Source: Rubrivivax sp. (GTDB lineage: Bacteria > Pseudomonadota > Gammaproteobacteria > Burkholderiales > Burkholderiaceae_C). From it: a stretch of 64,000 nt of DNA. The translations under genes and the position numbers were made by a program. Positions 3,106 through 56,283 of the stretch are shown here, one piece after another (position 1 is the first letter of the stretch; every line of letters starts with the position of its first letter). The DNA lies in assembly GCA_016789865.1 (NCBI GenBank), contig JAEUPC010000069.1, forward strand, positions 16,815 through 80,814, given 5' to 3'. The notes under the pieces were generated by a model that was not told the DNA's origin, made no database searches, and saw only the letters and a list, made by a program, of their open reading frames with translations.

Positions 3106-3230
3106 GGAGCGCCGCGCCGCGGGGCCGGGTGCCCCGGGGCGAGCGGACGGACAGCGCCGCGAAACCCCTGCGCATCGCGGCTGAGCACATCGCCGCCGAA
3201 CGCACCGCCACCCGCACCGCAGACCGCCAA

Positions 3231-3261
3231 GAAAAAAAGGCCCCGCAGCGCGGGGCCCTTT
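3231..3261. terminator. Bidirectional intrinsic terminator between converging TRAP genes
   Basis: A perfect 8-bp stem (GGCCCCGC at 3239-3246, GCGGGGCC at 3250-3257) with a three-base loop is preceded by seven A residues and followed by CTTT. The A-tract makes it a good terminator on the minus strand for the binding-protein gene. The shorter T-tract can serve the permease operon coming from the plus strand. Confidence 0.75.
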
Positions 3262-3301
3262 GCCTATTGCCGGTTTGCCCGTTGCAAGGCGCGGGCAGGT
3301 C

Positions 3302-10400: not shown

Positions 10401-10472
10401 GCCCGATGGGGGTACGGCCCGCCGCGCGGCGCCTCGGCCGCGATGGGGATGCGGCCGGCGATGCCGCTCGCC

Positions 10473-10478
10473 TACCAT
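10473..10478 (+). promoter_or_regulatory. Possible -10 element of the SIR2-like/TIR operon
   Basis: TACCAT ends seven bases before the ATG at 10486, and no Shine-Dalgarno sequence is visible in between. The same TACCAT lies ten bases before mutS (23126-23131). TAGCAT followed by CGGCG occurs before the Anbu gene (34642-34647) and the DUF488 gene (56230-56235). If these are -10 boxes, this transcript would be leaderless or nearly so. No clear -35 box is seen. Confidence 0.3.
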
Positions 10479-10485
10479 CGACGCC

Positions 10486-36398: not shown

Positions 36399-36466
36399 GG
36401 GCTCCGCCGGGGTTGCCGGTGCGCGGAGACCCGCCCCGGCACCGGTGGCGCTGACCGTCTCCGCCC

Positions 36467-39400
36467 TCAGCCGCCCGGAACCTGCCAATCGCCCAGCAAG
36501 CGCGGCAGCCAGCTGCCTCCCACGGCGTTGACCTTCTGCAGCGCGAAGCGCAGGCGGCCCAGGCGCTCGCTGGCGAAGAACGACCGCCACTGGTAGACCG
36601 CCCGCCGCCGCACCAGGCCTTCGACGAGATCGCGCGGATCGACGATCTCGATCACCGTCGCATCGGGGCCGTTGGCGTACAGCGCGACGCCGGTGGTGGC
36701 CTCGCGCCCCGCGGCCTGCTCCAGCGCCAGCACGGCAAAGGCCGAGGGGTTGGCCGGCAGCGTCGGCTCTTCCACGACGTCCAGCGTCAGCGTCACCAGC
36801 ACACCCTCGGCCCCTTCGACGAACACCGACAGCGCGAGCTGATCACCCGGTTGCAGCAATGCCGTGCCGATCTGCGCCGGCGTGGCCTCGGTGTCGGCCT
36901 GCAGCGCCGTGCAGTCCACGCTCAGCGCATGCAGCAAGGGCCGGCCCGGGCCCGCTGCGGCGAGGCGGAAGGTCTTCTCCTTCGGCCCCTGGACGGCGCC
37001 GGTCAGCGCGCGCGCACCGCGCAGGCTCAGGCTGGCCGTCGCGCCCTCTACCTTGCGCCGCCGCTCGACACCCAGGCGCAGCGCCGCCAGCTCCCCTTTC
37101 GCGTTGCGGTACGACAGCAGGCCTGCGGTGTCGGCAACGAAGGGCGCCTGCACCTCGACCCCCTGCACCTGCGGCCGCAGCGCCAGGGCCAGCTCCAGCC
37201 GCTCGTCGAAGCGCAGCTGCGAACGGTCGGCGGCGAACACGACGTCGTCGCCGGCCTGCACCGGCGAAGGCAGCCGGTTCAGCTTGGCGATGCCGCCCAG
37301 GCGGTCGTTGAACTCCGGGTCGTCGAAGCGGAAGTACACCGGCGTCTCCGGCACCGCCAGCCCGCCGGGGCCGGCCGTCCACAGCGACAGTCGCAGCTGG
37401 CGGTTCAGCACCACCTGCGGGTCCTGCGACCACACGAGGTCCAGCGTCAGTGTCACCTCGCTGGCCGCCGGCAACGCACGCAGGGCCCCCGCCGCGCTCG
37501 CCTGGCCGGATGAGAAGTCATCCAAGCGCAGCCGCTCGCCGTCGGTGTGCGCAATCTGCTCGCTGCCGCTGCCCTGGTAGCGCACGCCGTTGCTCACCAG
37601 CGCCTTGCCGGCGATCGTCCACACGGGCCTGCGCGCGCCGTCCGCCGCGCCCAGCAACGCGTCGACCTGCAGCTCGATGGCGCCGTCCCAGTCCGGCCCG
37701 ATGATGCCGCCGGGCGGCGACACCATCACCAGGCGCGTGGCCCACAGCGAACGCGGCGCCCGGTTCAGGCCGGCTGCCTCGAGGTCGGCCCCGGCTCGCG
37801 CGGCGCGAGGGCCGTGCACGACGACGGTGGGCATGCCGCCGACGCTGCAATGCCCCGCTTCATGCGAGCTGGCACGCGGCCGGTCATTGCGGGCCAGCAG
37901 CGCCGGCCGCGGCAGGCGCAGATGCACGGGGGTTTCGCCGCCGCGCCAGCTCATGCGCAAAGGGGCACCGGCAGCACCGCCGCCGGCCACTACCGCCGCG
38001 CCCTGCTGCATGAGCCCCAGGCGGGTGGTCAGCCAGGCGCCGGCCCGCGCAGCGATGCGCGTGGTGGCCACGCGGGCCGGTGCGTAGCTCTGCGTGCAGG
38101 CGAACTCGGTTGCCGGCTCCTCCGACGGCGGCCGGGCATGCGAAGCGGGCAGCAACGAGCGCGGCACGCCCAGCCGATAGCGCGGCGGCAGCGCGAAGGT
38201 CACGTCGTACGACGGCGCACCCGGCGTCGCAGCCGGCACTGCCCGCGCCTCGCGCAGCGCCAGGCTCTCGCGGTCGGCCAGCCAGTAGTCGCCGTGGGGC
38301 GCACCGCCCGCCGGCGAAGGCTCTTCGAGCAGCGCCCCGGCACCGCCGGCCAGCGCCCAGCCAACCGTGGCGGCGGTGGCCGCCAGCCGCGGTCCGTCGG
38401 TCGTGCCGGCGGGCCACTCGCCGCCGTCGCTGTGCACGAGCGTGGGCCCCACGTCGAGCGGAACGTAGCCGGGCATCACACCGGCATCGGCGGCAGCCCA
38501 TGGCGCCAGCGCCTCGCACTGCGCCTGCCGCGCGCGCGGCTGTGCCAGCGGCGCGGGCTCGAACCGCGGCCGCTGCAGGCCGGGGCCGCCGGGGGCCACG
38601 AGTTCAGCCACGCTGCCGGGCTCGAAGCCGAAGCTGCCCGCCCGTACCGTCAGCAGGCCCACCGCGGCCCAGGGGGCGTTGCGCACCAGTGTGCGCCGGG
38701 CCCAGCTCCGGCGGTCGGCGGGCAACACCGGGTCGACTTCCAGCGCCGCAGCCGTGCCCACGCCGCGGCCATCGCGCGCCAGCGTCTCCAGCCGCAGCGT
38801 CGGGCGCGCCGCTGCCACCGGAGCAGGAGCAGGAGCAGGGGCCGCGGCGGCCGCCGCGGGCTCGAGCGCGTCGGGTCCGGGCACCAGCTGGCGCACCGCG
38901 GCGTCGCGCAGCGCGGCCAGCGCCGTGCGGTAGACCTGCGGGTCGAACACCACGGCGCCCGCGGGCGGCACCACCGGCTGGCCGGCATCGTCGCGATAGA
39001 AGTCGGCCAGCGTCAGCGGCGCACGCACCCCGAAGCCCAGCGCCAGCGGCCGCTCGTCGCCCAGTCGCGCGAACAGCGCCGACAGCTGGAATGCCGTGCC
39101 AGCCGCCGGCAGTTCGTGGGCCGCCAACACGGGCGCGCCACCGCCGGTGCCGGCGCGGAAGACCACCGCCTGGAACACCGGCTGCTGGGGGTCGGGCGCT
39201 TCGGCGTCGGCGGCATCGAAGCCCAGCGCCGCGCAGGCCACGCAGTCGGCAGCCGCATCGAGCCCGGCCTGGGCATCGACGACGCGGCGCAGCGCCTGCG
39301 TCGCCAGCGCCGGTTCCAGCGCGGGCAGGACATGCGCCTCGTAGCGATCGGCCGCCGCCAGGTACAGCGTCGTGGCCGCCACCGGCCGCGCCGCGAAGGC

Positions 39401-42400
39401 CCGCCGCAGCGGCGATGCCGGGTCCGGCGGCAGCACCGGCTCGACGCCCGCGGGCTCGATGAAGGCCACGGCGGGCAGGCCGGCCAGCACCAGCGGCGCC
39501 GCCAGCTTGGCCGCACCGACCTGTGCCGCATCGGCCGCCAGCAGCGCGTGGTGCGACAGATCCACCGCCAGCGGCGCCGCTTGCAGGCCGTAGCCCGCCG
39601 CATCCAGCCGCTGCAGCAGCAGCGCCGCCAGGCGGCCGGTGAGCGCACCCGGGTCGGCGGCGCCGGCGTGCAGCACGTGCGGCAGCACCTGCTGATCGAT
39701 GAGCGGTCGTGCGTTGGGCGAGATGAGCGGCGAGAACGCCGTGGGGTCGCGGCCCGCCGCCACGGCCCCGGCCGGCGTGGCGGCGCGCACCAAGCGTTCG
39801 CGCAAGCCGGCCAGCGACAGCAGGCGCACGATCTGGAACGTGCGCCAGGTCAGCGAGCCCAGCGGCGCCGCGGCCGCGCGCGATGCCGCCGCGGCGCGCG
39901 CGCCCGCTCGCCTGGCCGCCGGCGTGCCCACGCGCGTGACCCGGTGCTGCACCTGCACCGCCAGCGCGATCTGCCGCCGATCGGCCAGCGCCTGCGGCCG
40001 CAGGTGCTGGCCGTCGAAGCGCAGCTGCGCCTCGTGCTCGAAGCCGCGCGACCACTCGGCCGCCAGCGGTGCCGCCAGCCAGTCGCCCACCGGCGAGGGC
40101 GCCTGCAGCTCGGGCCAGCTGAAGGCGTTGGGCAGCCGCAGCTCGCCGCGCAGGCGGTAGGTGCGTGCGCTGCGAGCGCCGCGCAGCCAGTCGAGGTCGA
40201 GCTGCAGCGTGCCCTGGGCACCGGCGGCGGGCACCGGGGCGTTGGCCTCGCCGCAGCGCAACTCGAAGCGCGCCCGCGTCTCGAGGTCGACGACCCGGTA
40301 CGAGGCGACCCGCCCGGCGGCACCGGGCCGCGCCTCGAGGGCCGCCAGCAGCGCGCCCTGCGCCTGGCTTACCTCCAGCGCGCCCCACAGCCGGTCGCGC
40401 CGGCCCGCCGCCGCGGCCGACCAGCTGATCGCGAAGTGACGCGGGCCCAACGCCACACCGGTTGACACCACTGCGGCCCCGCCGGACGGGTCGGACGCGC
40501 CGGTGTCGGCCGCCGGCAGCGGCTCGATATCCACGCGGTCGGCTTCGGAGAACGCGTGGTGCAGCCCGGCCAGCGCGACGCCGCCGCGCAGCAGGTCGCA
40601 GGTGGCCTCGCCCACCACGCGCGCGCCCACCGGGCCGACGCGCACGAGATAGCGCAGCGCCACCACCGGCGCGGCGCGCGGCACGATGCGGCCGCCCTCG
40701 ACGCCGGCGCCGCGCAGGTCGACCCACAGGCGGTCGAAGTCGATCGTGCCTTCGCCCGGCGCCGGCGGCGAAGGCACCCCGGGGTCGGCCTGCGCCAGCG
40801 CCTGGATGTGCCCGTCGGCGTCGCGCACCACCTGCACGTCGACCTCCATGTCGTCTTCGCCGAAGCGGTAGCGCAGCGACCCGGCGGCCGTCGCGCCGGG
40901 GGCAGGCAGGCTGGGCAGGCGCAATGCCGGCGCCACGCCCGCGGCAGCCTCGGGGTCGGCCAGGGGCCAGTCGAGGTCGGTGGCCAGCAGCCGCACCGCG
41001 TGGCCGCCACTGCTGCGCTCGATGATCAGCGTGGCGCGCGCTTCGCAGCGCGGCAACGCCGGCTCGGCGGGCGTGCCCACGGGCAGGCGCAGGCGGCCGC
41101 CGATCTCGATGCGGCTGGGCTGCGCGTCGCCGGCCTGCACCAGCCGCTCCAGCTCCAGCGGCTCGAACACCAGCCCCTGCACGATCACCAGCCCCAGATG
41201 GGCCGGCACCTGCGGGCTGCCCAGCGCCCAGCGGAAACCGGCCAGGTGGTTCAGGTCCAGCCCGGCGGCATTGGCGCGCCGTTCGAGGTCGGCCGCCGAG
41301 GCTGTGAACCAGGCCAGCGGGTTGCCGATGCCGCCGGTGGAGGTGTCTTCGGCCGGCACGTCGGCACACCAGAACTGCAGCGCCTCGCTGCCAGTGCAGA
41401 CAATGGGTTCGGCCAGGCTCACCAGCCGCACGCTGCGCCCGGCACCGGCAGCTTCGGTCAGCGTCTTCACGTGCACCAGCGCGGCCGCGCCCCCCGGCAC
41501 GGCGGCGCTGCGCAGGCCATGCTGGTCGGTGAAGCTGCCGTCGCCCGCGCGCGCCAGCGCCGCCGTGCCGAAGGTGACGGCGGCCTCGCCGCCGGCACGA
41601 CGGAAGCGGCCGGCCAGGCCGAGCAGGTCGCTTTCTGCCGGCAGGCCGAGGAATTCCAGCCGCGGCGGCTGCACCGCGTCGGAGGCGAACCCGAGCGCAA
41701 AGGCGCCGATTGCCTGCAGCCGCGGGCCCTCGGCAGGGTCGAAGCCGGCATCGCCGGCGCCGATGCGCTGCGTGCGCTCGTCGATGGCCACCGCACCGGC
41801 AAGCGGGTAGTCGGTGTCGCCGAACACGCCCACCAGCCGCAGCGGCCCGCTGCCTTCACGTTGCAGCAGCGCGCGCCGGTCGGCTGCGGCCAGCGCGACG
41901 CGGCGCTGCAGGTCGCGCCAGACGCGGTCCCAGCCGTTGCGCTCGGCGCCTCGCTCGGGGCCGTTGTTCGCCAGCGGCGTGAAGTGGGCCGTCTGCGGCA
42001 CCGCACGCGGCGCGGCAGCGGCCCCTCCGCCCGGGCCGCCGGCGCCGCCGGCCGCCGGGCCGGGTGCGCGCGCGAAGGCGTGGTGCTCGTCGCGCAGCGC
42101 GATGTCGTGCCGCAGTTCGGCCTGCACCGTCGCCGCGAAGCCGGCCCACCGGCCCGGCGTTGCCGCCGGCAGGTCGCCCGGCCGTGCCGGCACGCCGACG
42201 AACCAGGTGGCACTGGGCAGCGTGGTGATGGCCATGCCGATCTCGTCGCGCCAGCGATCGCCGGCCGCCGGCCGCACGAACGCCGCTGCAGCGAAGCGGC
42301 CGGTGCCCGGGTCGCGCACCTGCACCGCCAGCGGCATGTCCAGCCGGGTCATGGCCAGCGCGGCGACATAGCCGATCTCGGCACCCGCGGGCAGCGCGGC

Positions 42401-44659
42401 GGCCTGCAGCGGCGCCAGCGCGCGCGCTTCGGTCGGCGCGTTGCGCGCGCGCCCGGCCGCCGCCAGCGGCAGCGTCTGCACCGTGGGCAGCGCGGGGTGC
42501 GCGCTCCACACCCACGGGCGCTGCGCGGTGGCGTCGAGCACGATGTCGCCATCGGCCGCGCCGGCGAAGCTGCAGACCCAGGCCACGCCGGCGCCCTCGG
42601 CCACCCGCGTGGCCGCGCGCCCGGGCGCCGCCTCCAGCACCAGGCCGCGCAGCAACACCTCCACGCGCACGCGCGGGTGCGGCCCGGCCTGGTCGGCCTG
42701 GCGCCACATCTGCGCTTCCAGCCCGCGCAGCGTGTTGGGCGACACCGCCTTCAGCGGCAGCGAGACGAGCGCGCGCTCGGCGGCCTCGGGCAGCAGCCGT
42801 TCGGGCCGCTGGCGGAACGGCGTCGCGGTGGCGAAGCCCTCGAACGACATCTCGAAGTCCTGCAGCGTGACCTCGGCATCGATGACGGCACCCAGGCGCC
42901 CGGCCGCAGTGTCCAGCCGCAGCCGGAACGGCGCGCGCCGCGCACCCGTCAGACCCAGCGACCACGGCCGCTCGGCGGCCAGATGGTCCGGCTGCAGCGG
43001 CACGTTGCCGAAGATCAGCGCGCCCTGAATCTCGCGCGAGCGCGGCGCGGCCGGCACGTCGTCGGCGTTGTCGGGGACCAGCCGTGCCAGCACGGCGGCG
43101 GTGGCGTTGGGCAGCGGCCAGTGCAGCCAACCGCCCGCGATGGGCGTGAAGGTCCACAGCAGTTCGGGCGGCGCCGTGGGCTCGGGGCGCGGCACCCCGG
43201 TGGCCTGGCGCAGCGCCTCGGCGGTTTCGATCAGCGGCAGCGCCAGCCGCACCGCCTGCTGCTCGGGCGGCACCGGTGTGCCGCCGTCGCCGCGGTAGGT
43301 GAATTCCAGCCGCTCGGCGCGGGCCAGCGTGGCGGTGGGGGCACGGAAACGGTAGCCCGCCTCGACCCCGACGCCGCCCGGCGGGGCCGCGGGCGGCGCC
43401 TCGTCGCCGGCGACGCCCTCAATGACCACGGCGCTGCCCTGGCGGCGCAGGTCGAAGTGATCGGGCTGCAGCGTCAGCACCGACAGCGGCCGGGCATTCA
43501 GCGCCCGGTCGGCCAGGCGCATCAGCAGGCCCTCGCCATCGATGCTCAGCGCCGGCTCTCCCGCGCGGCCGGCGCGCGAGAATAGCGGCGAGTCCGCCGG
43601 CCCCGTCTCGGGCCAGTACAGGTGCGAGGGCTCGAGCGCCATGCCCGGCGCCACGTGCAGCCAGCGCGGCGGCGCATCCGCCTCGGGCCCGCCACCGGCG
43701 CCATCACCGCCGCGCAGCGCCCGGTCGAGCCCGGCAAGGTGCCCGCGCCAGGCCGCCACCAGCGGCGCATGGCCGGGCTCCTGCGGGTCGAGCCAGACCT
43801 TGAGCACCCGTTGCACCGGCCCGGCGCCGGCCTCCAGGCGGCGGTAGGTGGCCTTGAACCAGCCGGCCACGCTCTGGCCCGTCCACGGCAGCACGACGCC
43901 GCCGGCGACGCAGAAGCCGTCGGGCAGCAGCACCACGGTGTCGGCGTCGGCCACCGCATCGGCCGGCGGCGGTGCCGTCAGCCCCAGCTGCTCGCGCGCC
44001 TTGGCGAGGTAGCGCGGGTCCGGCCGCAGGCGGATCTTGCCGTGCATCAGCTGCACCGCCGGCAGCAGCTGCGAGGTGGGGCCGAAGCCGTCGTTGGGCG
44101 CCGCGCCGGTCAGCGGCGGCGGCCAGTCGCCGAACGGGCTGACCACGATGTTCTGCGGCCCGCCCACGGGTGCGGCGCCATGCAGCACCGGCAGGCTGGT
44201 GCGCAGCAGCTCTGCGGGATCGCCGCCGACCACCTCGGGAAGCGTGTGCAGCGCCAGCAGGCCCAGGCGCGCCTCGGCGGGATCGGCCGCCGGTGCCTGC
44301 GCGTCCTCGAGGCGCACCTGCAGGAACGCTTGCACCTCGGCGCGCAGCAGCGTGGGGGCGTGGAAGTGCGCCAGCGGCCCGTGCGCGCGCGCCGTGTCCA
44401 GCAGGACCAGCGAGCGCAGCGCGCGGCTGACGGCCTCGGTGGAGCGCGGGTCCATGCCCGGCAGCGTGGCCTCGTCGCGCAGCTCGCCCACGCGCAGGCC
44501 GAACGACCACAACGGCCCGAGCACACGCAGGTACGGCAGCTTCAGCGTGCGCCAGCGCCGCGCCGCGCCCATCGGGTCGCCCGCCTTCGGGCTGAACAGC
44601 GGCGGGTGCAGCACACGGTAGTAGCCGATGTTGGGCGGCGGCCCGTGCTCACCGTTCAT
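36467..44659 (-). CDS. Giant protein of unknown function (2730 residues), second gene of pair
   Basis: I do not recognise this protein. It has no signal peptide, no obvious membrane helix, no P-loop, and no NRPS, PKS, RHS/YD, haemolysin, FHA or cadherin motif. It starts MNGEHGPPPNIGYYRVLHPP and reads as many beta-strand-rich segments joined by Ala/Pro/Gly linkers (about residues 863-886 and 1930-1948). Trp, Arg and Leu are frequent and Cys is rare. Segments such as PFRLRLDTAAGRLGAVIDAEV and SYDVTFALPPRYRLGVPRSLL suggest sandwich-type or elongated structural domains. Base composition matches the neighbours. A GAGGG about eight bases before the ATG supports the start, 13 bp after the stop of the 3735-residue gene. 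A two-gene operon with related function is inferred. Confidence 0.85.
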   Translation of the reverse strand: MNGEHGPPPNIGYYRVLHPPLFSPKAGDPMGAARRWRTLKLPYLRVLGPLWSFGLRVGELRDEATLPGMDPRSTEAVSRALRSLVLLDTARAHGPLAHFHAPTLLRAEVQAFLQVRLEDAQAPAADPAEARLGLLALHTLPEVVGGDPAELLRTSLPVLHGAAPVGGPQNIVVSPFGDWPPPLTGAAPNDGFGPTSQLLPAVQLMHGKIRLRPDPRYLAKAREQLGLTAPPPADAVADADTVVLLPDGFCVAGGVVLPWTGQSVAGWFKATYRRLEAGAGPVQRVLKVWLDPQEPGHAPLVAAWRGHLAGLDRALRGGDGAGGGPEADAPPRWLHVAPGMALEPSHLYWPETGPADSPLFSRAGRAGEPALSIDGEGLLMRLADRALNARPLSVLTLQPDHFDLRRQGSAVVIEGVAGDEAPPAAPPGGVGVEAGYRFRAPTATLARAERLEFTYRGDGGTPVPPEQQAVRLALPLIETAEALRQATGVPRPEPTAPPELLWTFTPIAGGWLHWPLPNATAAVLARLVPDNADDVPAAPRSREIQGALIFGNVPLQPDHLAAERPWSLGLTGARRAPFRLRLDTAAGRLGAVIDAEVTLQDFEMSFEGFATATPFRQRPERLLPEAAERALVSLPLKAVSPNTLRGLEAQMWRQADQAGPHPRVRVEVLLRGLVLEAAPGRAATRVAEGAGVAWVCSFAGAADGDIVLDATAQRPWVWSAHPALPTVQTLPLAAAGRARNAPTEARALAPLQAAALPAGAEIGYVAALAMTRLDMPLAVQVRDPGTGRFAAAAFVRPAAGDRWRDEIGMAITTLPSATWFVGVPARPGDLPAATPGRWAGFAATVQAELRHDIALRDEHHAFARAPGPAAGGAGGPGGGAAAAPRAVPQTAHFTPLANNGPERGAERNGWDRVWRDLQRRVALAAADRRALLQREGSGPLRLVGVFGDTDYPLAGAVAIDERTQRIGAGDAGFDPAEGPRLQAIGAFALGFASDAVQPPRLEFLGLPAESDLLGLAGRFRRAGGEAAVTFGTAALARAGDGSFTDQHGLRSAAVPGGAAALVHVKTLTEAAGAGRSVRLVSLAEPIVCTGSEALQFWCADVPAEDTSTGGIGNPLAWFTASAADLERRANAAGLDLNHLAGFRWALGSPQVPAHLGLVIVQGLVFEPLELERLVQAGDAQPSRIEIGGRLRLPVGTPAEPALPRCEARATLIIERSSGGHAVRLLATDLDWPLADPEAAAGVAPALRLPSLPAPGATAAGSLRYRFGEDDMEVDVQVVRDADGHIQALAQADPGVPSPPAPGEGTIDFDRLWVDLRGAGVEGGRIVPRAAPVVALRYLVRVGPVGARVVGEATCDLLRGGVALAGLHHAFSEADRVDIEPLPAADTGASDPSGGAAVVSTGVALGPRHFAISWSAAAAGRRDRLWGALEVSQAQGALLAALEARPGAAGRVASYRVVDLETRARFELRCGEANAPVPAAGAQGTLQLDLDWLRGARSARTYRLRGELRLPNAFSWPELQAPSPVGDWLAAPLAAEWSRGFEHEAQLRFDGQHLRPQALADRRQIALAVQVQHRVTRVGTPAARRAGARAAAASRAAAAPLGSLTWRTFQIVRLLSLAGLRERLVRAATPAGAVAAGRDPTAFSPLISPNARPLIDQQVLPHVLHAGAADPGALTGRLAALLLQRLDAAGYGLQAAPLAVDLSHHALLAADAAQVGAAKLAAPLVLAGLPAVAFIEPAGVEPVLPPDPASPLRRAFAARPVAATTLYLAAADRYEAHVLPALEPALATQALRRVVDAQAGLDAAADCVACAALGFDAADAEAPDPQQPVFQAVVFRAGTGGGAPVLAAHELPAAGTAFQLSALFARLGDERPLALGFGVRAPLTLADFYRDDAGQPVVPPAGAVVFDPQVYRTALAALRDAAVRQLVPGPDALEPAAAAAAPAPAPAPVAAARPTLRLETLARDGRGVGTAAALEVDPVLPADRRSWARRTLVRNAPWAAVGLLTVRAGSFGFEPGSVAELVAPGGPGLQRPRFEPAPLAQPRARQAQCEALAPWAAADAGVMPGYVPLDVGPTLVHSDGGEWPAGTTDGPRLAATAATVGWALAGGAGALLEEPSPAGGAPHGDYWLADRESLALREARAVPAATPGAPSYDVTFALPPRYRLGVPRSLLPASHARPPSEEPATEFACTQSYAPARVATTRIAARAGAWLTTRLGLMQQGAAVVAGGGAAGAPLRMSWRGGETPVHLRLPRPALLARNDRPRASSHEAGHCSVGGMPTVVVHGPRAARAGADLEAAGLNRAPRSLWATRLVMVSPPGGIIGPDWDGAIELQVDALLGAADGARRPVWTIAGKALVSNGVRYQGSGSEQIAHTDGERLRLDDFSSGQASAAGALRALPAASEVTLTLDLVWSQDPQVVLNRQLRLSLWTAGPGGLAVPETPVYFRFDDPEFNDRLGGIAKLNRLPSPVQAGDDVVFAADRSQLRFDERLELALALRPQVQGVEVQAPFVADTAGLLSYRNAKGELAALRLGVERRRKVEGATASLSLRGARALTGAVQGPKEKTFRLAAAGPGRPLLHALSVDCTALQADTEATPAQIGTALLQPGDQLALSVFVEGAEGVLVTLTLDVVEEPTLPANPSAFAVLALEQAAGREATTGVALYANGPDATVIEIVDPRDLVEGLVRRRAVYQWRSFFASERLGRLRFALQKVNAVGGSWLPRLLGDWQVPGG

Positions 44660-44672
44660 CTGCGTGCCCTCA

Positions 44673-47600: not shown

Positions 47601-50600
47601 GTGGCGCGCCGCCCCACTCATCGCCGCCTCCACAACGGGCGATCCGGTGGCCTGCCCCTGTTCATGCAGCGCCTTCACCGCGGCGAGCACGCGGCCGTGC
47701 AGTTCGCCCTGCGGCAGCAGCAGCCCGCTGACCGGGTCGCGCAGGGCCAGCGTCAGCGCCAGCCCCAGCACGTGCAGCGCCGCCCAGCCGTAGGGGTCCA
47801 GCGCCTCGGTGTTGGCCTGCAGCCAAGCCTGCGGGGTCTTCAGCGACGTGCCCGGGCCGGCGATCACCTGCACCTCGAAGGCTGCCTCGGCCCCGCTGCC
47901 GGCCTGCTCGGCCAGTTGCCCCACCAGCATCGCCAGGTAGTCGTGCAGCCTGAGCTTGGTGACCTCGCGCCCGCGCTGGCGCCACAGCGCCAGCCTGGCG
48001 TCGAACGTGCCCTTGCCGTCCAGGCCGAAGCGCGGGTCGGGGCGGCCTTCGAACGACGCCGTGGGCCAGTGCAGCTCGCTTTCGCGCCACGACCACCAGC
48101 CGGGCCAGCGCTCGCTCATCTCGGCGGCGGGCACGCCGTGGCGATCGAGCCAGCCCGCCGTGCGCACGAAGGCGGGCGGCTGCGCCTCCCAGTTCTGCAC
48201 GTCGGCCATCGTCGCCGGTGTCTGCGCGGCCAGCGCGGCGTCGGTGGGCTGCACGCGCTTGATCCAGCGCCACGCCGGCGTGAAGCCACTGTCGGGCGCG
48301 AGGTCGGCATTGACGAGGTCTTCCAGCGGCAGCTCGAACAGGTCGTAGGCGGCCTGCGCATGCAGCGGCACGCCGGCGTTCCACACCACCTGCACCGCGC
48401 GCGTGCGGCCGGGTCGGGCGATGTAGCGCAGCTGGCTCACCTCGCCGCCGGTTTCCAGCACCGGCACCGGCACCTGCAGCGGACCGACGAATGCGGCGAC
48501 GTCCTGCAACTGCGCCGTCGCCCCGCCCTCGGGCACCTGGCCCGGGTCGGCGAGTTCGTGCCACACGGGCCATTCGAAGTGCGGCAGTGGCCGCTCGACG
48601 CTCGCCTGGCCTGCCTGCGGCGCGGCCAGCCACAGCCGCAGCTGCGCCAGGCCCGACAGGCCACGGCCACTTTGCAGCCGTGTGTCGTCTTCGAGGTCGG
48701 TGGTGGCACGCAGGAACAGGCGCCAGGCGCGCCCTCCCGCCGCGGCGGCACTCTCCCGCGCAAGAAAGGCGGCGGCGGCCATGCCCAGCGGCGAGCCCGC
48801 GCTCACCGGCTGGCCGCGGTGGTCGTACAGCGCAGCCAGCAGCGCGCTGTAGTCGCGCCCGGCCTCCAGCGGCAGTTCGTACAACCACAGCGCCGGCGCG
48901 CGGTCGAACTCGGCGTCGGGGTCGGCCTCACCGACCTGGGGCCGCTCGGGCTTGCGGCGCGCCAGGCCGATGGCACGCGCCGCCGCGGAGTCGATGCGCG
49001 GCAGCTTCACCACGATGTCGCCTTCGATCAGCGCCTGGCCCGTGGCGCTCATCAGGCCGCGGTCGGCGACGTCGACCGTGTCGTCCGGGTAGGCCCCCAG
49101 CGGCACCGCGGCCAGCGGTCGCAGCACGAGGTGCCAGCCGTCGGTGACGGCCACGCCGCCGGTGGCCGGCAGGGCCAGCTCGCGCCAGGCGAGCCGCGCG
49201 CTCCACGCCTGGCCACGGGCCGGGCGGCCGAGCACGAGGCGGGCGTCGTCCGCCGGCAGCGGGGCCAGGCGGGGCTCGAACTGCAGTGTGGCGGTGAAAG
49301 GCGCACCGCGGCGGCCGGTCTGGCTGATCGGGGTGATCGTCGCACCGAGCGTCGTGAGGCGCTGGTCGGACGCGCCGGCCTGGCCGCCCAGCAACTCGGC
49401 GCGCGCGATCGTGAACTGGTAGCGCAGGCGCAGGCGCTGCGCCGTGCCGCCGGCCGCCGCAGGCACTTCCAGCTCACTCGGCGTGGTCGTCACGGTGCGC
49501 AGCACGCGGCCGCTTTCGACGTCGAAGAAGACGATCTCGTAGGCGCGCAGGTAGGCCTCGACGTCGCGCCGCGCACCGTCGGCAAAGCTCGGCGGCAGGC
49601 CGGCCCATTGGAGCTGCCAGGCCAGGCCGATGACCTCGTCGTCGAAGTACGGCGGCGCGGCGGCGAAGACGGGCGGGTTCTTCTCGAAGTCGACCTTCTC
49701 GAAATCGACCACCGGCTGCAGCGGGAACTCGCGCTGCGCGTGGCTCGCGGCCTTGAAGCGCAGGCGCGGGTAGCCGGCGGCATCGGCACGCTGGTGCAGC
49801 CAGGCCGGACGGGCGCGCGCGCGCACACACACCACCATGCCGAGGTCCAGCAGCGTCGGTCGGCCGAGCGCGGCGGCGCCGCCGGCCAGCCCGGTGGTCA
49901 CCGGGCGGCCGCCGGTCAGCGTGGTGCTACGGGCGATCGTCACGAGGTCGTCGTGGAACGCCTGGATGAGGAAGCTCTGGTTGCCGCGTGCCTGCTCCTG
50001 CAGCTCGGCGGCGCGGCCCGCATCGGCGGGAGGCCGCACGCGCGAGGTCGGGTCCACCGCACGCGCCATCGCGTCGATGAGCGCGCGGTCGTACGGATGG
50101 TTGCGGTCGAGCCGGCGGTTGGGCGCGCGGTCGGGGTGGCGCGCATCGCGCACGCGCGTGTCCTCCAGCGGCGTCGCCTCGCTGGCATGGCCGTCGGGCG
50201 TCACCAGCGCCACGGGCACGCTGTCGGCCGGCGGCCAGTATTGCGGGAACGGCAGCTTCTCGCCCCCGGCGGCCGGCGGCAGGTCGAACTGCTTCGGATC
50301 GTCGGGCAGCCAGCTGCCGGCCAGCAGCGTCTGCAGTGTCAGGCCGTCCTTGACCTCGGCGCCCGCCTCGGTGGTCAGCGCCGCCGCGGCGTGCGGGTTC
50401 AGCTGCAGCAGCGCCTCGGTGCCCGGCACCGCCACCCATTGCCCGTCGCGCCACGTGTACAGCGTGATGCCCGCCAGCGGCACGCCAGTGAAATCGAGCG
50501 TCGCGTAGTCCAGCGGCTGCTTCGGTGCGGCGGCCGTCACGCGGGGGGCGGGGTAGAACTCCAGGCCGTTCGGCCCGGGCATGACCCACAGGAACCACAG

Positions 50601-53600
50601 CGATTCATCGCCCTGCGCACCCTGGACGTAGGCGCTGACGAAGTGGTCGCGGGCCGCCGCGGCGGCAGCCGCCGGCGCCCCCACGGCCGCCCTGGCCGTG
50701 CTGGCGGACTCGGCCGCCCTGGCCGTGCTGGCAGACTTGGCCGCCCTGGCTGTGCGGGCGGACTGGGCCGCCGGCCGCGCCGTCGCCGCGGCGGCGGCGG
50801 CCGGCCCGACACCCGGCGCGGCGAGGGCCGCGCGCGCCGAGTTCGGCACGCCCGGCAGCGCCGGCACCTGCCCCGGTTCGAGCAGCGAGCCCATGTACGG
50901 CGCCAGCGCCGCGCGGGCCCGATCGACTCCGCCTTCGTTCAACCCCACCGCCACGGCCACACCCAGCGTGCGCCCGAAGATCCCGATGCGCAGCTGCGCG
51001 CGCGCCTTGAAGCCGAGGTCGCCCTGCCCTGCCCATCCCAGCTCCAGCGCGACCACGATCTGCAGGCTGAACGAGAACGAGATGCTGATGCGGATCTTGA
51101 CGAAGCCGATCTTGATGCGCAGCCAGGCCGAGACCGAGAAGCGCACGCCGACATCGAGCCCGATGGCGGCGTAGACATTGGAGTCCAGAGGCCGCGTCAC
51201 CTGGATGCCGGCCAGCAGCCGGGCGGCGAAGTAGACGTTGATCTGCGCCTCGGCGCGCAAGCCGATGAAGCCGCCGTCGAATCCGCCGGCCAGCTTCAAG
51301 CCGCCGCGCGCCGAGAAGAACAGGCCCTGCACGAGCAGGTCGCGCTCGAGCCTGAGCAGAAGCCCGCCGCGGCATTCGAGCTGCAGCGAACCGACCTTCC
51401 AGCTGAACATCAGCCGGTCGGGCCAGCCCAGCTCGGCGTGCAGCAGGCCCGGTTCGATGAGCAGCGTGGCCTCGAAGTGCGACAGCCTGAGCACGTCCTT
51501 GAGGACCTCGGGCATCGGCTTGTCCTTGGGCCCGAGGTACGGGTTGCGGCCCTTGGCGGCGTGCGCGAGGAAGCGGCTCTGCGGCACCGAATAGATCATG
51601 AAGCCGCTGGCCAGCGGCCGCGCGCGCATGCCTTCGGTGTCGGCGTAGAAGTCGTCCAGGCTCACCGGGTACCAGACCTTGGCGCCGGCGGCGACCGTGA
51701 AGTCGCTGCGGAAGGCGGCGAAGACCTGCGCCACCAGCGTCATCAGCTTCTTCTCGCGCTCGCTCTTGTAGCCCTTGAAGCCGGCGTGCGTGGTGCCCAG
51801 CGTGAACACCGACTCCAGCGCGATCGTCCAGCGCACGGGCCCGGGCCGCGCCTCCCAGCTCTCCAGCGTGGCCAGCGACTGCTGGCGGTCGACCGCGTCG
51901 AGCAGCACGCGCAGCAGCTCGGCGATGGAAGCCTGCGGCTCGTCGAAGCGCGCGATCAGCGGCAGCGTGTAGCGAAAGCCGAAGCCCAACCCGACCTGCC
52001 GCAGGTAGATCGGCAGCGAGGCGACCTGGAAGCTCATGCGAGAGGCCTCGATGGCGATGAACCAGGCGTGCTGCCAGGGCTCCTCGGCCGTTTCCCGCAG
52101 GCGGATGAAGGCAAACGCGGCGGCCAGCCGCGGCAGGCCCTTGATCTCGACCGAGCCTTCGCCGGCGAAGCCCTTGCGCGTGTCGGTGTCGTAGGTGGCC
52201 ACGCGGCCGGCGATCGTGCACGCCTCGGTGGCGATCTCGACGCGCAGGTCTTCGAAGTGCCACTGCGGCACCGAGCTGCCGCGGCGCGGGAAGCCCAGCC
52301 GCAGCGCGTGGAACTGGATGTCGGCCGAGATGATGTCGCCGCGCTGCGCGAACTGGCACTGGCCGCCGATGACGATGGCCGCGCCCGGCTCGGCAAAGCC
52401 GTCGAAGCGCGGCTCGAAGCCGATCGAGCGGATCTCCATGCGGAACAGCTTGTAGACCTCGAAGGTCACCGGCTTCTTCAGCTCGACCACCAGCTTCAGG
52501 TGCTGGTGGAACTCGTCGGTCAGCGGTGCGCGCACGAACTCGATGCGCGCGCTTTCGAGATCCTCGAGCAGGCCGCCCGAGAACTCGCCGGTGTCGGGCG
52601 AGAACTGCGCCGAACCGGTGAGTTCGAAGAAGAAGTGGCGCTCGCCGGCTGGCGCGTCGCGCAGGTACTCGATGCCCAGTTGCGTGATCTCGAACTTGAA
52701 GCGCGTGCCGCGCGAGAAGATCGGCGCGTCCTTGTCACCCAGCTCGCAGTGCATCTGGTCGAGGTCGATCGCGCCGCCCGCGCTGGGCTGGGCAAAGGCG
52801 ATCGACAGCTTGACCGGCGCCTCGTTGAGCAGCTCGGGCAGCTTGCCCGAGGCGTCGATGGCCAGGTACTCCAGCCGGCTGGCGCGGATACGCAGCGCTG
52901 CGCGCTCCAGCGCAAAGGGCCGCGCCAGACCGCGCACGCGCACGGTGCTGGCCAGCAGCGCCGCCTCGAGGTCGAGGCCGCCCGGGCCGAGCACGAAGGT
53001 ACTGACCCAGAAATTCAGGCTGTCGCGGCCAAGCTTGGTGTAGCGCAGCAGCAGGCTGCGGCCGGCAGGCAGGCCCAGCGTGAACAGGCCGTCGCGCAGA
53101 CTGAGCACCAGCACGCCGAGTTGCTCGGGCGCTTGGGCGACGCCGCCGTTGGGCACCAGCGCCGTCATCTCCAGGCCGAGCAGCTTCTTGGGCTGCGAGT
53201 ACCAGTAGCGGTCGGCGTCTTCGGGCAGCGGCACCTCGGCAGCCCAGCCTGGCGTCGCAGGGAGGCTGGCCAGCGCGAAGTCGAGCTGCGCGCCGCCTTC
53301 GATGCCCAGCGACAGGTCGCCGAGGTCGAAGCGGAAGGCCACCCGGCCCTTGGCTTCGAAGCGCTCTTCGCCCTGGCCGAGCGCGAACATGAGCTCGGTG
53401 CGGATGACGACGGCGCGCGTGGCGCCCGCGCTCAGCGCGCGTGCGCCGGGCGCGGCACCGCTGCCGTCGGCGCCGCAGATCTCGAGGATGCGAAAGCCCA
53501 CCGACTGCCCGGCCGGGTTGGCCGGGCCGGTGAAGGCGCGGAACAGCGACTGCAGCGCGGCAATCTCCACCGACAGCCGCCAGCCCTGCGCGTCGAAGGC

Positions 53601-55880
53601 CGGCGTCTCGAACGCGTCGAAGGCCACCGGCACGGGCGCCACCAGCGGCTTGGGCGGCGGGCAGCCGGGGTCGCCCGAGGCCGGCAGCGGCTTGCCCGGC
53701 GGCAGCAACGTGTTCAGCGGCGGCGCGTCGCCGGCCAGCGTCTGCATGAAGCGCAGCGAATGGCCGTTCGCGCCCTTGCGCCACGCCACCGTGCGCACCG
53801 CGGCCGCGCCGGCGCCGCCGTAGCCCACGGCGGCGGTGAGGAAGCTGCCGGGCTGGTTGGTTTCGGCCACGTCGCGACGGCCGCCCTGCCCTTGGTCGCT
53901 CTTGACCGAGAAGCCGATGCGCGCCCGCGCGATCGGCGCCACCGCCGCCGCGGGCGCCGGCGCCGCCGCCGGCGCCGCGAACAACAGCAGGTGGGCAAGC
54001 GAGGTCGCGCCGTCGGCTTCGCGACGCACGACGATCGTCTGCTCGTCGCTGCGCGCCAGTTGCAGCGAGATGGCAGCGAAGTTCAGCTCGCGCGCGCGCG
54101 CCGGAGCGACGTCGAGGAACACCCCGGGCGCGGCCAGCGGCAGGTTGAACTCGGGCTTGGGCAGTGGGTCACCCGTGAACTCGATGCACTCGCCGGTGAA
54201 CGGCGCCGGGGCCCGCGTGCCGGCGTGCGCCGGCGGCGCGCCAGCGTCCTCGGGCCGCCAATCCAGCCGCACCTGCGTGACCGCCCCGCCGTCGAAGCGC
54301 GCGATTTCCAGGCCGAACAGCGTGGAGCCCTCGTCCTCGGCCACCTCGCCGGCGGCTTCGCGGCCCAGCAGCGTGTGGCCGAGGGCCCGCAGGAAGCGCA
54401 GCCCGTATTGCCGCCACAGCACGAAGACGCGTTCGTCGAGGCGGAAGTCGCCGTCCAGGAAGCGCACGCCGTAGTCGTTGGCCGGCTCGTTGGGCTTCTT
54501 CTCCTCCAGCAGGTCCTTGGCGAAACTCAGCGCCGGGATCGGCGTGTTGCCATAACGCCTGAACGGTTCGTTCAGGAAGCCGACGTCGGCGAACAGCGGG
54601 GGCGGCGCCGGCGGATTGGGGTCCACCAGTGACGGCATCTGATTCGACAGCACCTGCCAATCGCGCACCAGCAGCCTGAGGTCGGTGCGATACAGGCCGT
54701 CCTCGTCGTCGGCGTCACCGAAGCGGCTGCGCAGTTCGAGCCCGCCGACTTCGAGCAGCACCTCCAAGCACAGCCGCCCCAGCGCCGAAGGCGAACCGGT
54801 GGAGAACAACCCGAAGCGGAAGTACCAGCAGTCGGCTTCGACCCACAGCAGGTCCAGCGGCAGCGCGAAGCGCCACGGCTTCGGCTCGGCGGACACCGTG
54901 GGGTACGACTTCTCCAGCAGGGCGGCGACGAAGGTGTAGCGCCGGGAGGCGGTGTCGTAGAGGAGCTCCAGGCGGCCGGGCAGGTCGAGATCGGTTTCGC
55001 CCCAGCGCAGATGGAAGTCCTTCGCCCACGCCTGCACCGCATAGCCGCCGGCCTCGGCCCTCTCGATGCGCGCACCGACGTCGCGCGCGCCGATGCCGAA
55101 CGGCACCTTCAGCTCGAGCCTGGGCAGGTCTGGCAGCGACCAGTCGGGCAACCGCGGCAGCGAGGGCAGGTTGAGCGTCGGCCAGGCATCGACCAGGTTG
55201 CCGAACCAGCGCAGCAACCAGTCGAGGCTGAACAGCGACCCGTCGCCGCCCTCGAACAGCGACCACGACGACCAGCCCGTGCCCAGGCCGAACGAGGGCC
55301 ACTCCAGCTTCCATTGCAACGCCGGCAGCGCGGCGGCCGGCAGCTGCGGCACCGTGCCCGCCAGCGTGGCGCACAGCTCGACCTGGGCGCTTGCCGCGGC
55401 GGCGATGTCGTTGCGCCCCCCCGGGAACGACACCGGAAACACCGCGCCCGCGGCGGCGGCGGCATCGATCGCCCAGCACAGCGTGAGTTCGAAGCAGGGC
55501 GAGGCCCGGCCCCAGTCGCTGCCGCCCGGCCGCGGGCGCAGCACCAGGCGCACCGCGCTGAGCTGCGCCTGCGAGCGCAGCGCCAGGCCGACCAGGCCTT
55601 CGTCACCGAACGGGACCGGCTGCGGCTGGGCGAGGTCCACCTCCAGTGTGAGCGTCTCGGTCAGCGACTCGTAGCTGAAGCCGGCGTGGGAAAGACCGTG
55701 CGGCGCCTTCAGCACCACCTCGCGGCCGACGGTGTGCACCTCGCCGCCGGCCCTTCGCACCTCGAGTTCGAAACGCAGCTTCGCGGTCTCGGCCGCGCTG
55801 GTGACGATGCGCGCTTCCAGCCCCACCACGCCGGGCCAGGCGGCCGGCACGTCGAAGGGCAGCGCGAAGAGCTTGGCCAT
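44673..55880 (-). CDS. Giant protein of unknown function (3735 residues), first gene of pair
   Basis: I do not recognise this 11.2-kb gene's product. It starts MAKLFALPFDVPAAWPGVVG without a signal peptide. The N-terminal ~1690 residues are rich in alternating beta-strand sequence, for example the amphipathic run ISISFSFSLQIVVALELG near residue 1600, and in Pro-spaced strands (LPSLPRLPDWSLPDLPRL near 240). An Ala-rich linker with three 9-residue repeats covers ~1690-1750. The C-terminal ~1980 residues are a mix of strand-rich and helical segments of a different character. No nucleotide-binding, protease or toxin motif was found. Base usage matches flanking genes, so recent transfer is not evident. 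Its ATG has only a weak AGG upstream. Long tubular lipid-transfer, phage-tail-like or surface proteins are conceivable analogues but unproven. Confidence 0.85.
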   Translation of the reverse strand: MAKLFALPFDVPAAWPGVVGLEARIVTSAAETAKLRFELEVRRAGGEVHTVGREVVLKAPHGLSHAGFSYESLTETLTLEVDLAQPQPVPFGDEGLVGLALRSQAQLSAVRLVLRPRPGGSDWGRASPCFELTLCWAIDAAAAAGAVFPVSFPGGRNDIAAAASAQVELCATLAGTVPQLPAAALPALQWKLEWPSFGLGTGWSSWSLFEGGDGSLFSLDWLLRWFGNLVDAWPTLNLPSLPRLPDWSLPDLPRLELKVPFGIGARDVGARIERAEAGGYAVQAWAKDFHLRWGETDLDLPGRLELLYDTASRRYTFVAALLEKSYPTVSAEPKPWRFALPLDLLWVEADCWYFRFGLFSTGSPSALGRLCLEVLLEVGGLELRSRFGDADDEDGLYRTDLRLLVRDWQVLSNQMPSLVDPNPPAPPPLFADVGFLNEPFRRYGNTPIPALSFAKDLLEEKKPNEPANDYGVRFLDGDFRLDERVFVLWRQYGLRFLRALGHTLLGREAAGEVAEDEGSTLFGLEIARFDGGAVTQVRLDWRPEDAGAPPAHAGTRAPAPFTGECIEFTGDPLPKPEFNLPLAAPGVFLDVAPARARELNFAAISLQLARSDEQTIVVRREADGATSLAHLLLFAAPAAAPAPAAAVAPIARARIGFSVKSDQGQGGRRDVAETNQPGSFLTAAVGYGGAGAAAVRTVAWRKGANGHSLRFMQTLAGDAPPLNTLLPPGKPLPASGDPGCPPPKPLVAPVPVAFDAFETPAFDAQGWRLSVEIAALQSLFRAFTGPANPAGQSVGFRILEICGADGSGAAPGARALSAGATRAVVIRTELMFALGQGEERFEAKGRVAFRFDLGDLSLGIEGGAQLDFALASLPATPGWAAEVPLPEDADRYWYSQPKKLLGLEMTALVPNGGVAQAPEQLGVLVLSLRDGLFTLGLPAGRSLLLRYTKLGRDSLNFWVSTFVLGPGGLDLEAALLASTVRVRGLARPFALERAALRIRASRLEYLAIDASGKLPELLNEAPVKLSIAFAQPSAGGAIDLDQMHCELGDKDAPIFSRGTRFKFEITQLGIEYLRDAPAGERHFFFELTGSAQFSPDTGEFSGGLLEDLESARIEFVRAPLTDEFHQHLKLVVELKKPVTFEVYKLFRMEIRSIGFEPRFDGFAEPGAAIVIGGQCQFAQRGDIISADIQFHALRLGFPRRGSSVPQWHFEDLRVEIATEACTIAGRVATYDTDTRKGFAGEGSVEIKGLPRLAAAFAFIRLRETAEEPWQHAWFIAIEASRMSFQVASLPIYLRQVGLGFGFRYTLPLIARFDEPQASIAELLRVLLDAVDRQQSLATLESWEARPGPVRWTIALESVFTLGTTHAGFKGYKSEREKKLMTLVAQVFAAFRSDFTVAAGAKVWYPVSLDDFYADTEGMRARPLASGFMIYSVPQSRFLAHAAKGRNPYLGPKDKPMPEVLKDVLRLSHFEATLLIEPGLLHAELGWPDRLMFSWKVGSLQLECRGGLLLRLERDLLVQGLFFSARGGLKLAGGFDGGFIGLRAEAQINVYFAARLLAGIQVTRPLDSNVYAAIGLDVGVRFSVSAWLRIKIGFVKIRISISFSFSLQIVVALELGWAGQGDLGFKARAQLRIGIFGRTLGVAVAVGLNEGGVDRARAALAPYMGSLLEPGQVPALPGVPNSARAALAAPGVGPAAAAAATARPAAQSARTARAAKSASTARAAESASTARAAVGAPAAAAAAARDHFVSAYVQGAQGDESLWFLWVMPGPNGLEFYPAPRVTAAAPKQPLDYATLDFTGVPLAGITLYTWRDGQWVAVPGTEALLQLNPHAAAALTTEAGAEVKDGLTLQTLLAGSWLPDDPKQFDLPPAAGGEKLPFPQYWPPADSVPVALVTPDGHASEATPLEDTRVRDARHPDRAPNRRLDRNHPYDRALIDAMARAVDPTSRVRPPADAGRAAELQEQARGNQSFLIQAFHDDLVTIARSTTLTGGRPVTTGLAGGAAALGRPTLLDLGMVVCVRARARPAWLHQRADAAGYPRLRFKAASHAQREFPLQPVVDFEKVDFEKNPPVFAAAPPYFDDEVIGLAWQLQWAGLPPSFADGARRDVEAYLRAYEIVFFDVESGRVLRTVTTTPSELEVPAAAGGTAQRLRLRYQFTIARAELLGGQAGASDQRLTTLGATITPISQTGRRGAPFTATLQFEPRLAPLPADDARLVLGRPARGQAWSARLAWRELALPATGGVAVTDGWHLVLRPLAAVPLGAYPDDTVDVADRGLMSATGQALIEGDIVVKLPRIDSAAARAIGLARRKPERPQVGEADPDAEFDRAPALWLYELPLEAGRDYSALLAALYDHRGQPVSAGSPLGMAAAAFLARESAAAAGGRAWRLFLRATTDLEDDTRLQSGRGLSGLAQLRLWLAAPQAGQASVERPLPHFEWPVWHELADPGQVPEGGATAQLQDVAAFVGPLQVPVPVLETGGEVSQLRYIARPGRTRAVQVVWNAGVPLHAQAAYDLFELPLEDLVNADLAPDSGFTPAWRWIKRVQPTDAALAAQTPATMADVQNWEAQPPAFVRTAGWLDRHGVPAAEMSERWPGWWSWRESELHWPTASFEGRPDPRFGLDGKGTFDARLALWRQRGREVTKLRLHDYLAMLVGQLAEQAGSGAEAAFEVQVIAGPGTSLKTPQAWLQANTEALDPYGWAALHVLGLALTLALRDPVSGLLLPQGELHGRVLAAVKALHEQGQATGSPVVEAAMSGAARHFALDLPVQHLRAYRSGQARSRRDDAALSMLQLSLRPLPSPVLRYAVAQLRVDSDGPTEAPFSVAQRADIRFAVNNPVRPSVHRPPVLVGPASGAGAVPPVSLARTFFDGDLILLRAEDPAALLRALANDATGLKADPELVKGLQAFAQQPLGLVDAKTTVPQGLDVDALALTPFERFDVDFAFWAARLKPPAGDSSYRRFLDDLVELFAPRDADDKATAALKAALAEADRAEEGHPLLALYLAWSARFFRTAPLAVDDRFENVTVTQPKTVEPLRFTVDGQGRMAYTQPVEEEWAGERAYAVVPVGRYQRLLAAPAEVPPVLPQLAGGRADVELPRVRRLEAPKLLSVRVIADAAGRWFHELVVAHPERSLAQSNIAVRRKLAFGEIQRAYRRRFLHSAWLDLLEAAGVVGQPAAGLPRPPDRAGPAGSAGPAAGEPLRAGDDTLLAAAPQARWDATRYLDAAEPHYYEQVVRYRASAAEAVFSEEKQVVLAAPPAWPVGPLAAAPVVLGTVSWRGPKAVQHDEWAAQLAGSPALPHLARSGHLLDIRWPRLIESLDPASLAGPAAHFAAEVARYTLDGTPFAPVGCLPDPEVRLAIVSEATTGSATIATIETVLDADPDAPPAARLFTLRPQAADFELGELTIAVAAVAAEPAGPDAAPADWADGVHVRVAVSPALVAIVQRPPGPSRPFGVPTLLAAVNPAPSADPAAGSPLDQLLDARALPARGPLQQLAPLALRLQEEGNRVRMLDPLPARPWLCRPHVQPPATAAPTAGAPATQRDLALGLRLVVDLERRRAAALLAWDAEAAAGEQPPNEALADGATGLLHRLEESDIALLLGHRDLLPLEPQFLPEWERLGLTLWRREADAPTAPGGQPAAGRWRQVTDGQGLVEVGWSLLLYQGPPPGTQGPVFEALTWLDSTFVDAERGFRPARTFEFNARMDELAGLAYRSAPMRPPAVYVQRGNAPRLPWPRAQ
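50686..50766. repeat. Three tandem 27-bp units in the linker of the 3735-residue gene
   Basis: Three consecutive 27-bp copies beginning GCCGCCCTGGC encode an Ala/Ser/Arg/Thr nonapeptide (SASTARAAE type) three times. The copies differ at a few positions. They fall in the Ala-rich hinge that separates the two halves of the giant protein. Confidence 0.9.
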
Positions 55881-56283
55881 GCCTGACCGGCCGCGCTACG
55901 CGCGGCGCCGCTGCGGCGCCGACGCTCCCTCGTGTCGCCGCGGGCGTCCGCTGCACGTCACCGCGCCATCGCCGTGGTGGGCCATTCCGGTGGTTCTTGT
56001 TGACTGCCGGTCCAAGCCCATCTTCGAACCGCGCCGCGGGCTTGGCATCAGGGAAAGTACCCTCGAAGCGCCGACGTGTCCCTAGAACAGCGCATGCACC
56101 GAACCGGCCGGCGCGCACGCACCCGAGACCACGAGCCCCCTTGCGGCGGGGCTTGCACCATGGGCCCGGCAAGCTGCTCGGCAGGGGCACATCGAGCCGC
56201 AGGCGCGGGCCCCGACCAGCCGCGCGTGGCATAGCATCGGCGGCCCATTCGCCCACCTTCGACCCCCAGGGAAGAGCACCGTC
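55881..56283. promoter_or_regulatory. 403-bp divergent region upstream of the giant operon
   Basis: No convincing gene. Directly before the giant gene lie GC-rich inverted repeats (GGCGCCGC-type, around 55905-55925). A TAGCAT at 56230-56235 may be a -10 element for the DUF488 gene. AGGGAAGAG at about 56269-56277 is the DUF488 ribosome binding site. The promoter of the giant operon must lie here, but I cannot point to it. Confidence 0.4.

What the first reader, a model, noticed from the sequence alone, without database searches (positions are those of the whole stretch)
36467..55880. A 19.4-kb pair of giant genes without recognisable family
Two adjacent minus-strand genes, 2730 and 3735 codons, separated by 13 bp, make up 30% of the window. 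Seen directly: both frames are uninterrupted, base use matches neighbours, there is no signal peptide, and none of the motifs of large known proteins (NRPS/PKS, RHS, FHA, cadherin, P-loop) is visible. Inference: a co-translated structural or scaffold pair, strand-rich and linker-segmented, forming a complex.
Basis: partly seen in the sequence, partly recalled or inferred. Interest (0 to 1): 0.8.

Follow-up and report, generated by a model that had tools for sequence, protein, structure and literature searches.

The report
Mobile pair of giant beta-strand genes
Two side-by-side giant bacterial genes of unknown function turn out to be a conserved, horizontally moving two-gene unit, found on plasmids and chromosomes of scattered Proteobacteria, whose larger protein is rich in long beta-strands and only remotely related to one uncharacterised protein family.

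Summary
In detail: two minus-strand genes, A (3735 aa) and B (2730 aa), 13 bp apart. Neither matches Pfam, NCBIfam or PDB sequences. The pair is real: A homologues lie in 20 other loci, 11 of them on plasmids. In 20 of the 20 loci where adjacency can be judged, window included, a B-type giant ORF (in pieces in three) follows A on the same strand; in a few B is assigned on weak identity. A and B distances correlate at r=0.98 over 19 pairs. The unit is very rare in the genomes sampled. In the window it is a 19.9-kb insertion, by comparison with one close relative, holding no other recognised gene. Residues 1-1700 of A are rich in amphipathic beta-strands; the core aligns colinearly with DUF6603 (P=6e-5) but fails Pfam's cut-off. 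In 8 of 20 loci a peptidase- or wall-enzyme-like gene (M23, C70 or YkuD) lies beside the pair; no background rate was measured. Leading mechanism, inferred only: an envelope-directed complex with a hydrophobic groove. No function is shown; both fold models are weak.

The parts
44673..55880 (-). gene A, 3735 aa
   Evidence: ORF and translation; homologues in 20 other loci
53241..55880 (-). A residues 1-880: beta-strand-rich N-terminal part
   Evidence: beta-periodicity 0.20 of windows, shuffled 0.09-0.10
50781..53243 (-). A residues 880-1700: best conserved core, remote DUF6603 relative
   Evidence: conservation, profile comparison, low-confidence model
50631..50813 (-). A residues 1690-1750: Ala-rich linker
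   Evidence: read from the translation
44676..50633 (-). A residues 1750-3735: C-terminal part, no assigned fold
   Evidence: no Pfam or PDB match; the last 745 residues are not amphipathic
44660..44672 (-). 13-bp gap between A and B
   Evidence: 15 junctions computed run from a 29-base overlap to a 36-base gap
36467..44659 (-). gene B, 2730 aa
   Evidence: ORF and translation; homologues
36373..56282 (.). inserted stretch of 19,910 bases, absent at this site in relative G009
   Evidence: BLAST of both flanks against G009; no terminal repeats beyond chance

Best explanation
A+B is a horizontally moving two-gene unit that makes a giant beta-rich protein pair. Shown: the genes stay adjacent, in one order and strand, in every testable locus; their sequences diverge in step; close copies are under purifying selection; in the window's lineage the unit sits in an insertion with no other recognised gene. 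Partly shown: the first 1700 residues of A are long amphipathic beta-strands, remotely related to DUF6603. Inferred: these strands form a groove or trough that holds lipid or lies against membrane, B and the C-terminal part of A complete the complex, and it acts on a cell envelope. Where present, a wall-enzyme-like or membrane-protein gene beside the pair would give access to the envelope or let the complex out; without an evident signal peptide, release would need lysis or an unknown route.
For: Adjacency in 20 of 20 testable loci; matched divergence r=0.98, best of 5000 permutations 0.49; dN/dS 0.24-0.27; insertion of A+B alone. Beta-periodicity 0.44 of windows in A 1460-1700 against 0.11 shuffled. 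Strand-rich model. Wall-enzyme- or peptidase-like gene beside the pair in 8 of 20 loci, four more by motif reading only.
Against: The A model is weak (pLDDT 57, pTM 0.37) and Foldseek gives no usable match; a true beta-barrel, the window's TonB receptor, hardly stands out in the same periodicity measure (0.11 against 0.09, z 1.0), so the measure is no general proof of sheet. No lipid-binding family is hit. Eight of 20 loci, the window among them, show no such neighbour, and the window's genome has no copy of the M23-like gene. No background rate of wall enzymes was measured. No complex, location or ligand was tested.
Confidence: 0.33

Rival explanations
1. A released antagonistic particle: A+B form a large bacteriocin- or toxin-like assembly that leaves the producer when a wall enzyme opens it (as recalled for Tc toxins and their lysis genes) and acts on other cells.
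For: No evident signal peptide, giant size, mobile and rare, different wall-enzyme- or peptidase-like genes beside the pair in 8 of 20 loci.
Against: No toxin, receptor-binding or immunity family was found: A and B hit nothing in Pfam or NCBIfam. No such neighbour in 8 of 20 loci. No immunity gene recurs.
Confidence: 0.25
2. An intracellular accessory system of mobile elements, such as defence or plasmid competition, in which A+B are a scaffold.
For: Plasmid and island distribution; AbiEii-type toxin, TIR, HsdM and UvrD-like genes near some copies.
Against: PADLOC found nothing in 8 neighbour proteins (A and B themselves were not scanned). No nuclease, NTPase or other effector domain in A or B. 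Those genes also lie on such plasmids for other reasons.
Confidence: 0.22
3. A coat or organiser of an internal lipid or polymer granule.
For: Amphipathic strands; ApoB100 and microsomal triglyceride transfer protein appear among the 50 Foldseek rows shown, with TM-scores of 0.10 or less.
Against: Those scores do not count; nothing in the neighbourhoods points to storage; the sparse, mobile distribution is unlike housekeeping.
Confidence: 0.1

Closest known systems
DUF6603 (Pfam PF20248), family of unknown function
   Same: Colinear profile match over 381 columns; very large ORFs up to 3390 aa, rich in amphipathic strands, followed by further large ORFs in some loci.
   Different: Below Pfam's cut-off in the homologues scanned, no hit in A itself; the A profile did not significantly find the DUF6603 ORFs in the part of the output shown; no B homologue seen there.
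Bridge-like and AsmA-type lipid transfer proteins (TamB, YhdP, YdbH, VPS13; named in abstracts listed)
   Same: Long proteins built of repeated amphipathic beta-strands, as predicted for A 1-1700.
   Different: No Pfam relation, no evident N-terminal membrane anchor, no fold match.
Tc toxins with lysis genes (recalled, no call)
   Same: Very large proteins without evident signal peptide; wall enzymes nearby in part of the loci.
   Different: No Pfam, NCBIfam or PDB sequence relation.

Membership tests
DUF6603 (PF20248) | score over Pfam's gathering cut-off of 27 bits | tested here: not met
   A: no hit at E<=1; homologue P0006: 14.8 bits, E 0.011
DUF6603 (PF20248) | colinear profile similarity over the domain | tested here: met
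   381 columns, P 6.4e-5, probability 64%; clade II alone P 0.021; control P 0.51
AsmA/bridge-like lipid transfer proteins | AsmA, chorein or TamB Pfam domain | tested here: not met
   0 Pfam families
AsmA/bridge-like lipid transfer proteins | repeated beta-groove fold | tested here: inconclusive
   long strands predicted, pLDDT 57; Foldseek TM-scores 0.19 or less
AsmA/bridge-like lipid transfer proteins | N-terminal membrane anchor of the bacterial ones (recalled) | tested here: not met
   highest 19-residue hydropathy in A is 1.65 at residue 132; no dedicated predictor run
Tc, RHS, NRPS/PKS, cadherin-type giant proteins | their Pfam domains | tested here: not met
   0 families for A and B in Pfam and NCBIfam at E<=1

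The most novel reading that the evidence does not exclude
A mobile two-gene device that builds a giant bacterial lipid-trough complex (an ApoB- or bridge-like assembly, arisen on its own) used across cell envelopes, with wall-opening enzymes as exchangeable accessory parts.
Probability: 0.15. Interest if true: 0.88.

Novelty: categorically new. Interest (0 to 1): 0.62.

Why it matters
A 19-kb pair that stays together across distant Proteobacteria, moves on plasmids and is kept under selection must do something that pays for its size, yet Pfam and NCBIfam do not know it. If A really is a lipid-holding beta-trough it would be a new kind of mobile envelope machinery, and it would give the uncharacterised DUF6603 family a first testable function.

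Tried and rejected
The scan of genome contigs with A alone found nothing; an alignment of the core did. Phage collection with B: no match. Two scans of viral contigs found one contig, the same in both; it carries GTA-type tail genes and a type I methylase gene, so I do not read the pair as a phage gene. PDB profile searches with A4, A6, A7, A10, A11: nothing but one chance-level hit, E 0.42. Foldseek on the A model: no usable match. The fold of B 200-1200 is too poor to search. Terminal repeats at the insertion: none beyond chance. PADLOC and PHROGs were run on neighbours only (8 and 7 proteins), not on A or B. One fixed third gene: rejected, neighbours vary. Decaying junk: against it dN/dS 0.24-0.27, but the Neorhizobium copy is in broken frames, by decay or sequencing error. 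Weak homology: window B found no BLAST match in G377 and G378; there B rests on place, size and 47-50% identity to S. terangae B, which BLAST links to window B. B of Undibacterium and Cupriavidus is at most 22% identical to any other B and rests on place and size. A weak A match in G420 (45 residues) is not counted. My first ORF listing missed B in Ruegeria, Roseovarius and B. diversitatis; searches corrected this. One row of my first DUF6603 alignment was read on the wrong strand and was corrected, which all comparisons use.

Full report
OBSERVATION. Codon-position GC is like that of neighbours. Since the opposite strand also holds a 3011-aa ORF (45597-54632), length alone proves little at 75% GC; the homologues below do.

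NO KNOWN FAMILY, ONE REMOTE RELATIVE. A and B give 0 families at E<=1 in Pfam and NCBIfam and 0 PDB sequences. A homologue of A in Sinorhizobium terangae gives DUF6603 at E 0.011, 14.8 bits against a cut-off of 27. A profile of 12 A cores aligns with 4 DUF6603 sequences over 381 columns in order, P 6.4e-5, probability 64%. The four-sequence clade II profile gives P 0.021 at a corresponding place; the C-terminal part of A, as control, gives P 0.51. Against it: a simple HMM of A did not significantly find the DUF6603 ORFs in the part of the output shown. I call this a remote relationship, not membership. The held library has no paper with the word DUF6603.

THE PAIR ELSEWHERE. A homologues were found on 11 plasmid records (Rhizobium 4, Sinorhizobium 2, Neorhizobium, Bradyrhizobium, Mesorhizobium, Undibacterium, Cupriavidus), in 7 loci of genome contigs (Ruegeria, Enterovibrio, Emcibacter, Roseovarius, Bradyrhizobium 2, a Rhodospirillales MAG), in one IMG/VR contig and in one further alphaproteobacterial genome, G569. 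With the window that is 21 loci. In Emcibacter A and B lie on different short contigs, so adjacency cannot be judged. In the other 20 of 20 a B-type giant ORF follows A on the same strand; in the 15 whose junction I computed it runs from a 29-base overlap to a 36-base gap. In R. ruizarguesonis and Undibacterium B is split into two ORFs. The Neorhizobium copy is in broken frames. Over 19 pairs (Neorhizobium and Emcibacter left out) A and B distances correlate at 0.98; the best of 5000 permutations reached 0.49. In the 12-sequence comparison two clades are seen, about 20% identical to each other. B of Undibacterium and Cupriavidus is at most 22% identical to any other B and is assigned on place and size.

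RARITY AND MOVEMENT. Apart from the window's own genome, 0 of 99 relatives (59 of the same genus, 40 of the order, with a less conserved piece of A) and 0 of 273 genomes of the class gave a match. In the class of the B. diversitatis genome 1 of 384 others matched strongly, and a 45-residue match is not counted. In relative G009 the alpha/beta-hydrolase and DUF488 genes that flank the pair in the window lie side by side: their protein alignments end 72 bases apart, the flanking DNA is 92% identical on both sides, and further neighbours follow in the same order. Window 36373-56282 (19,910 bases) has no counterpart there. Besides A and B it holds no gene that I recognise; short ORFs exist beside A. 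No terminal repeats beyond chance were found. This rests on one relative; the nine others fetched do not show the two flanking genes together and say nothing about the exact site. Since no same-genus genome searched matched A, I read it as insertion in the window's lineage, not loss.

SELECTION. dN/dS is 0.24 for A and 0.25 for B between S. chiapasense and R. anhuiense, and 0.27 for A between R. ruizarguesonis and R. leguminosarum: purifying selection.

STRUCTURE. Best conserved are residues 900-1700 of A. An AlphaFold2 model of residues 520-1700 has pLDDT 57 and pTM 0.37: meandering long strands, up to 24 residues near the end. A simple beta-periodicity measure gives 0.44 of windows in residues 1460-1700 (shuffled 0.11), 0.20-0.21 in residues 1-1260, 0.17 in 1750-2800, 0.08 in 2990-3735, 0.13-0.18 in the parts of B, 0.22 in a DUF6603 protein, 0.11 in the window's TonB receptor and 0.10 in MutS. 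The TonB receptor is a true barrel and hardly exceeds its shuffles, so the measure shows amphipathic periodicity, not sheet as such. Foldseek against PDB ranks outer-membrane barrels, secretion channels, LptD, ApoB100 and LPD-3; in the 50 rows shown no TM-score exceeds 0.19, so no fold is assigned. The B model (residues 200-1200, pLDDT 41) is unusable.

NEIGHBOURS. Of the 20 loci, 8 have a peptidase- or wall-enzyme-like gene next to the pair by a library or homology result. An M23-like gene lies just upstream in Enterovibrio (32.8 bits, over the cut-off), Ruegeria (26.7 bits, just under), Roseovarius and B. diversitatis (homologues; the residues that I read as the M23 metal site are invariant in 4 of 4), and in pieces in Neorhizobium. 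A papain-like C70 gene lies downstream in S. chiapasense and its homologue in R. anhuiense; its target may be protein, not wall. A YkuD L,D-transpeptidase gene lies downstream in B. japonicum. Four more are my reading of motifs without a significant library hit: CHAP-like in R. brockwellii (E 0.029, under the cut-off), CHAP/amidase-like in Cupriavidus (about 1.5 kb upstream), M15-like in G569, lysozyme-like in the IMG/VR contig. In the remaining 8, the window among them, I recognised none. A separate family that reads like a membrane protein lies beside the pair in B. huanghuaihaiense, the Rhodospirillales MAG, S. terangae (partly seen) and Roseovarius. The window's genome, 77% complete, gave no match to the M23-like gene. 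No background rate was measured, so this is a lead only.

MECHANISM. I favour an envelope-directed complex whose A subunit has a hydrophobic beta-trough (0.33) over a released antagonistic particle (0.25), an intracellular accessory or defence system (0.22) or a granule coat (0.10). Only the pair, its movement and its selection are shown, and its strand-rich nature partly.

NOVELTY. I mark it categorically new because the two-gene unit fits no model in the libraries used on A and B and fails the cut-off test of its nearest family. A cautious reader could call it a distant branch of DUF6603 giants, which are themselves uncharacterised and also sit among large ORFs. Literature was seen as search listings and starts of abstracts only; the searches for DUF6603 and for giant genes with rhizobial plasmids and peptidoglycan returned no paper.

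Noticed in passing
window 45597-54632 (+): A 3011-aa ORF antisense to gene A, most likely a by-product of the high GC at third codon positions.
   Followed up: no
window 10443-13907 (+): A 1154-aa protein with a novel STAND NTPase domain (nSTAND1, 89.5 bits); no PADLOC match.
   Followed up: partly
window 34732-35562 (+): A proteasome-like (Ntn hydrolase) gene, just under Pfam's cut-off, with a match in 42 of 60 other relatives searched.
   Followed up: partly
G111, G825, G844 (loci L056-L059, L062-L063): DUF6603 ORFs of 1560-3390 aa followed by further large ORFs; mechanical ORF lists, some may be shadow frames. DUF6603 was found in 4 of 200 genomes of the phylum.
   Followed up: partly
L003 13431-33728: The Neorhizobium plasmid copy of the pair is broken into several frames, by decay or sequencing error.
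   Followed up: partly
G373:C21:64302-64678 (Ruegeria): Two short matches to the A core away from the intact pair, perhaps a remnant of a second copy.
   Followed up: no
L042 9647-17989 (IMG/VR contig behind L015): GTA-type tail protein and a tape-measure gene a few kb downstream of the pair.
   Followed up: no
L014 5697-7622 (-), L013 5458-7296 (-): A family of about 570-640 aa that reads like a multi-pass membrane protein, without Pfam match, beside the pair in four loci.
   Followed up: partly
L011 1923-3722 (+): Zinc-dependent phospholipase C-like gene (36.3 bits, over the cut-off) about 1.8 kb upstream of the M23-like gene in Roseovarius.
   Followed up: no
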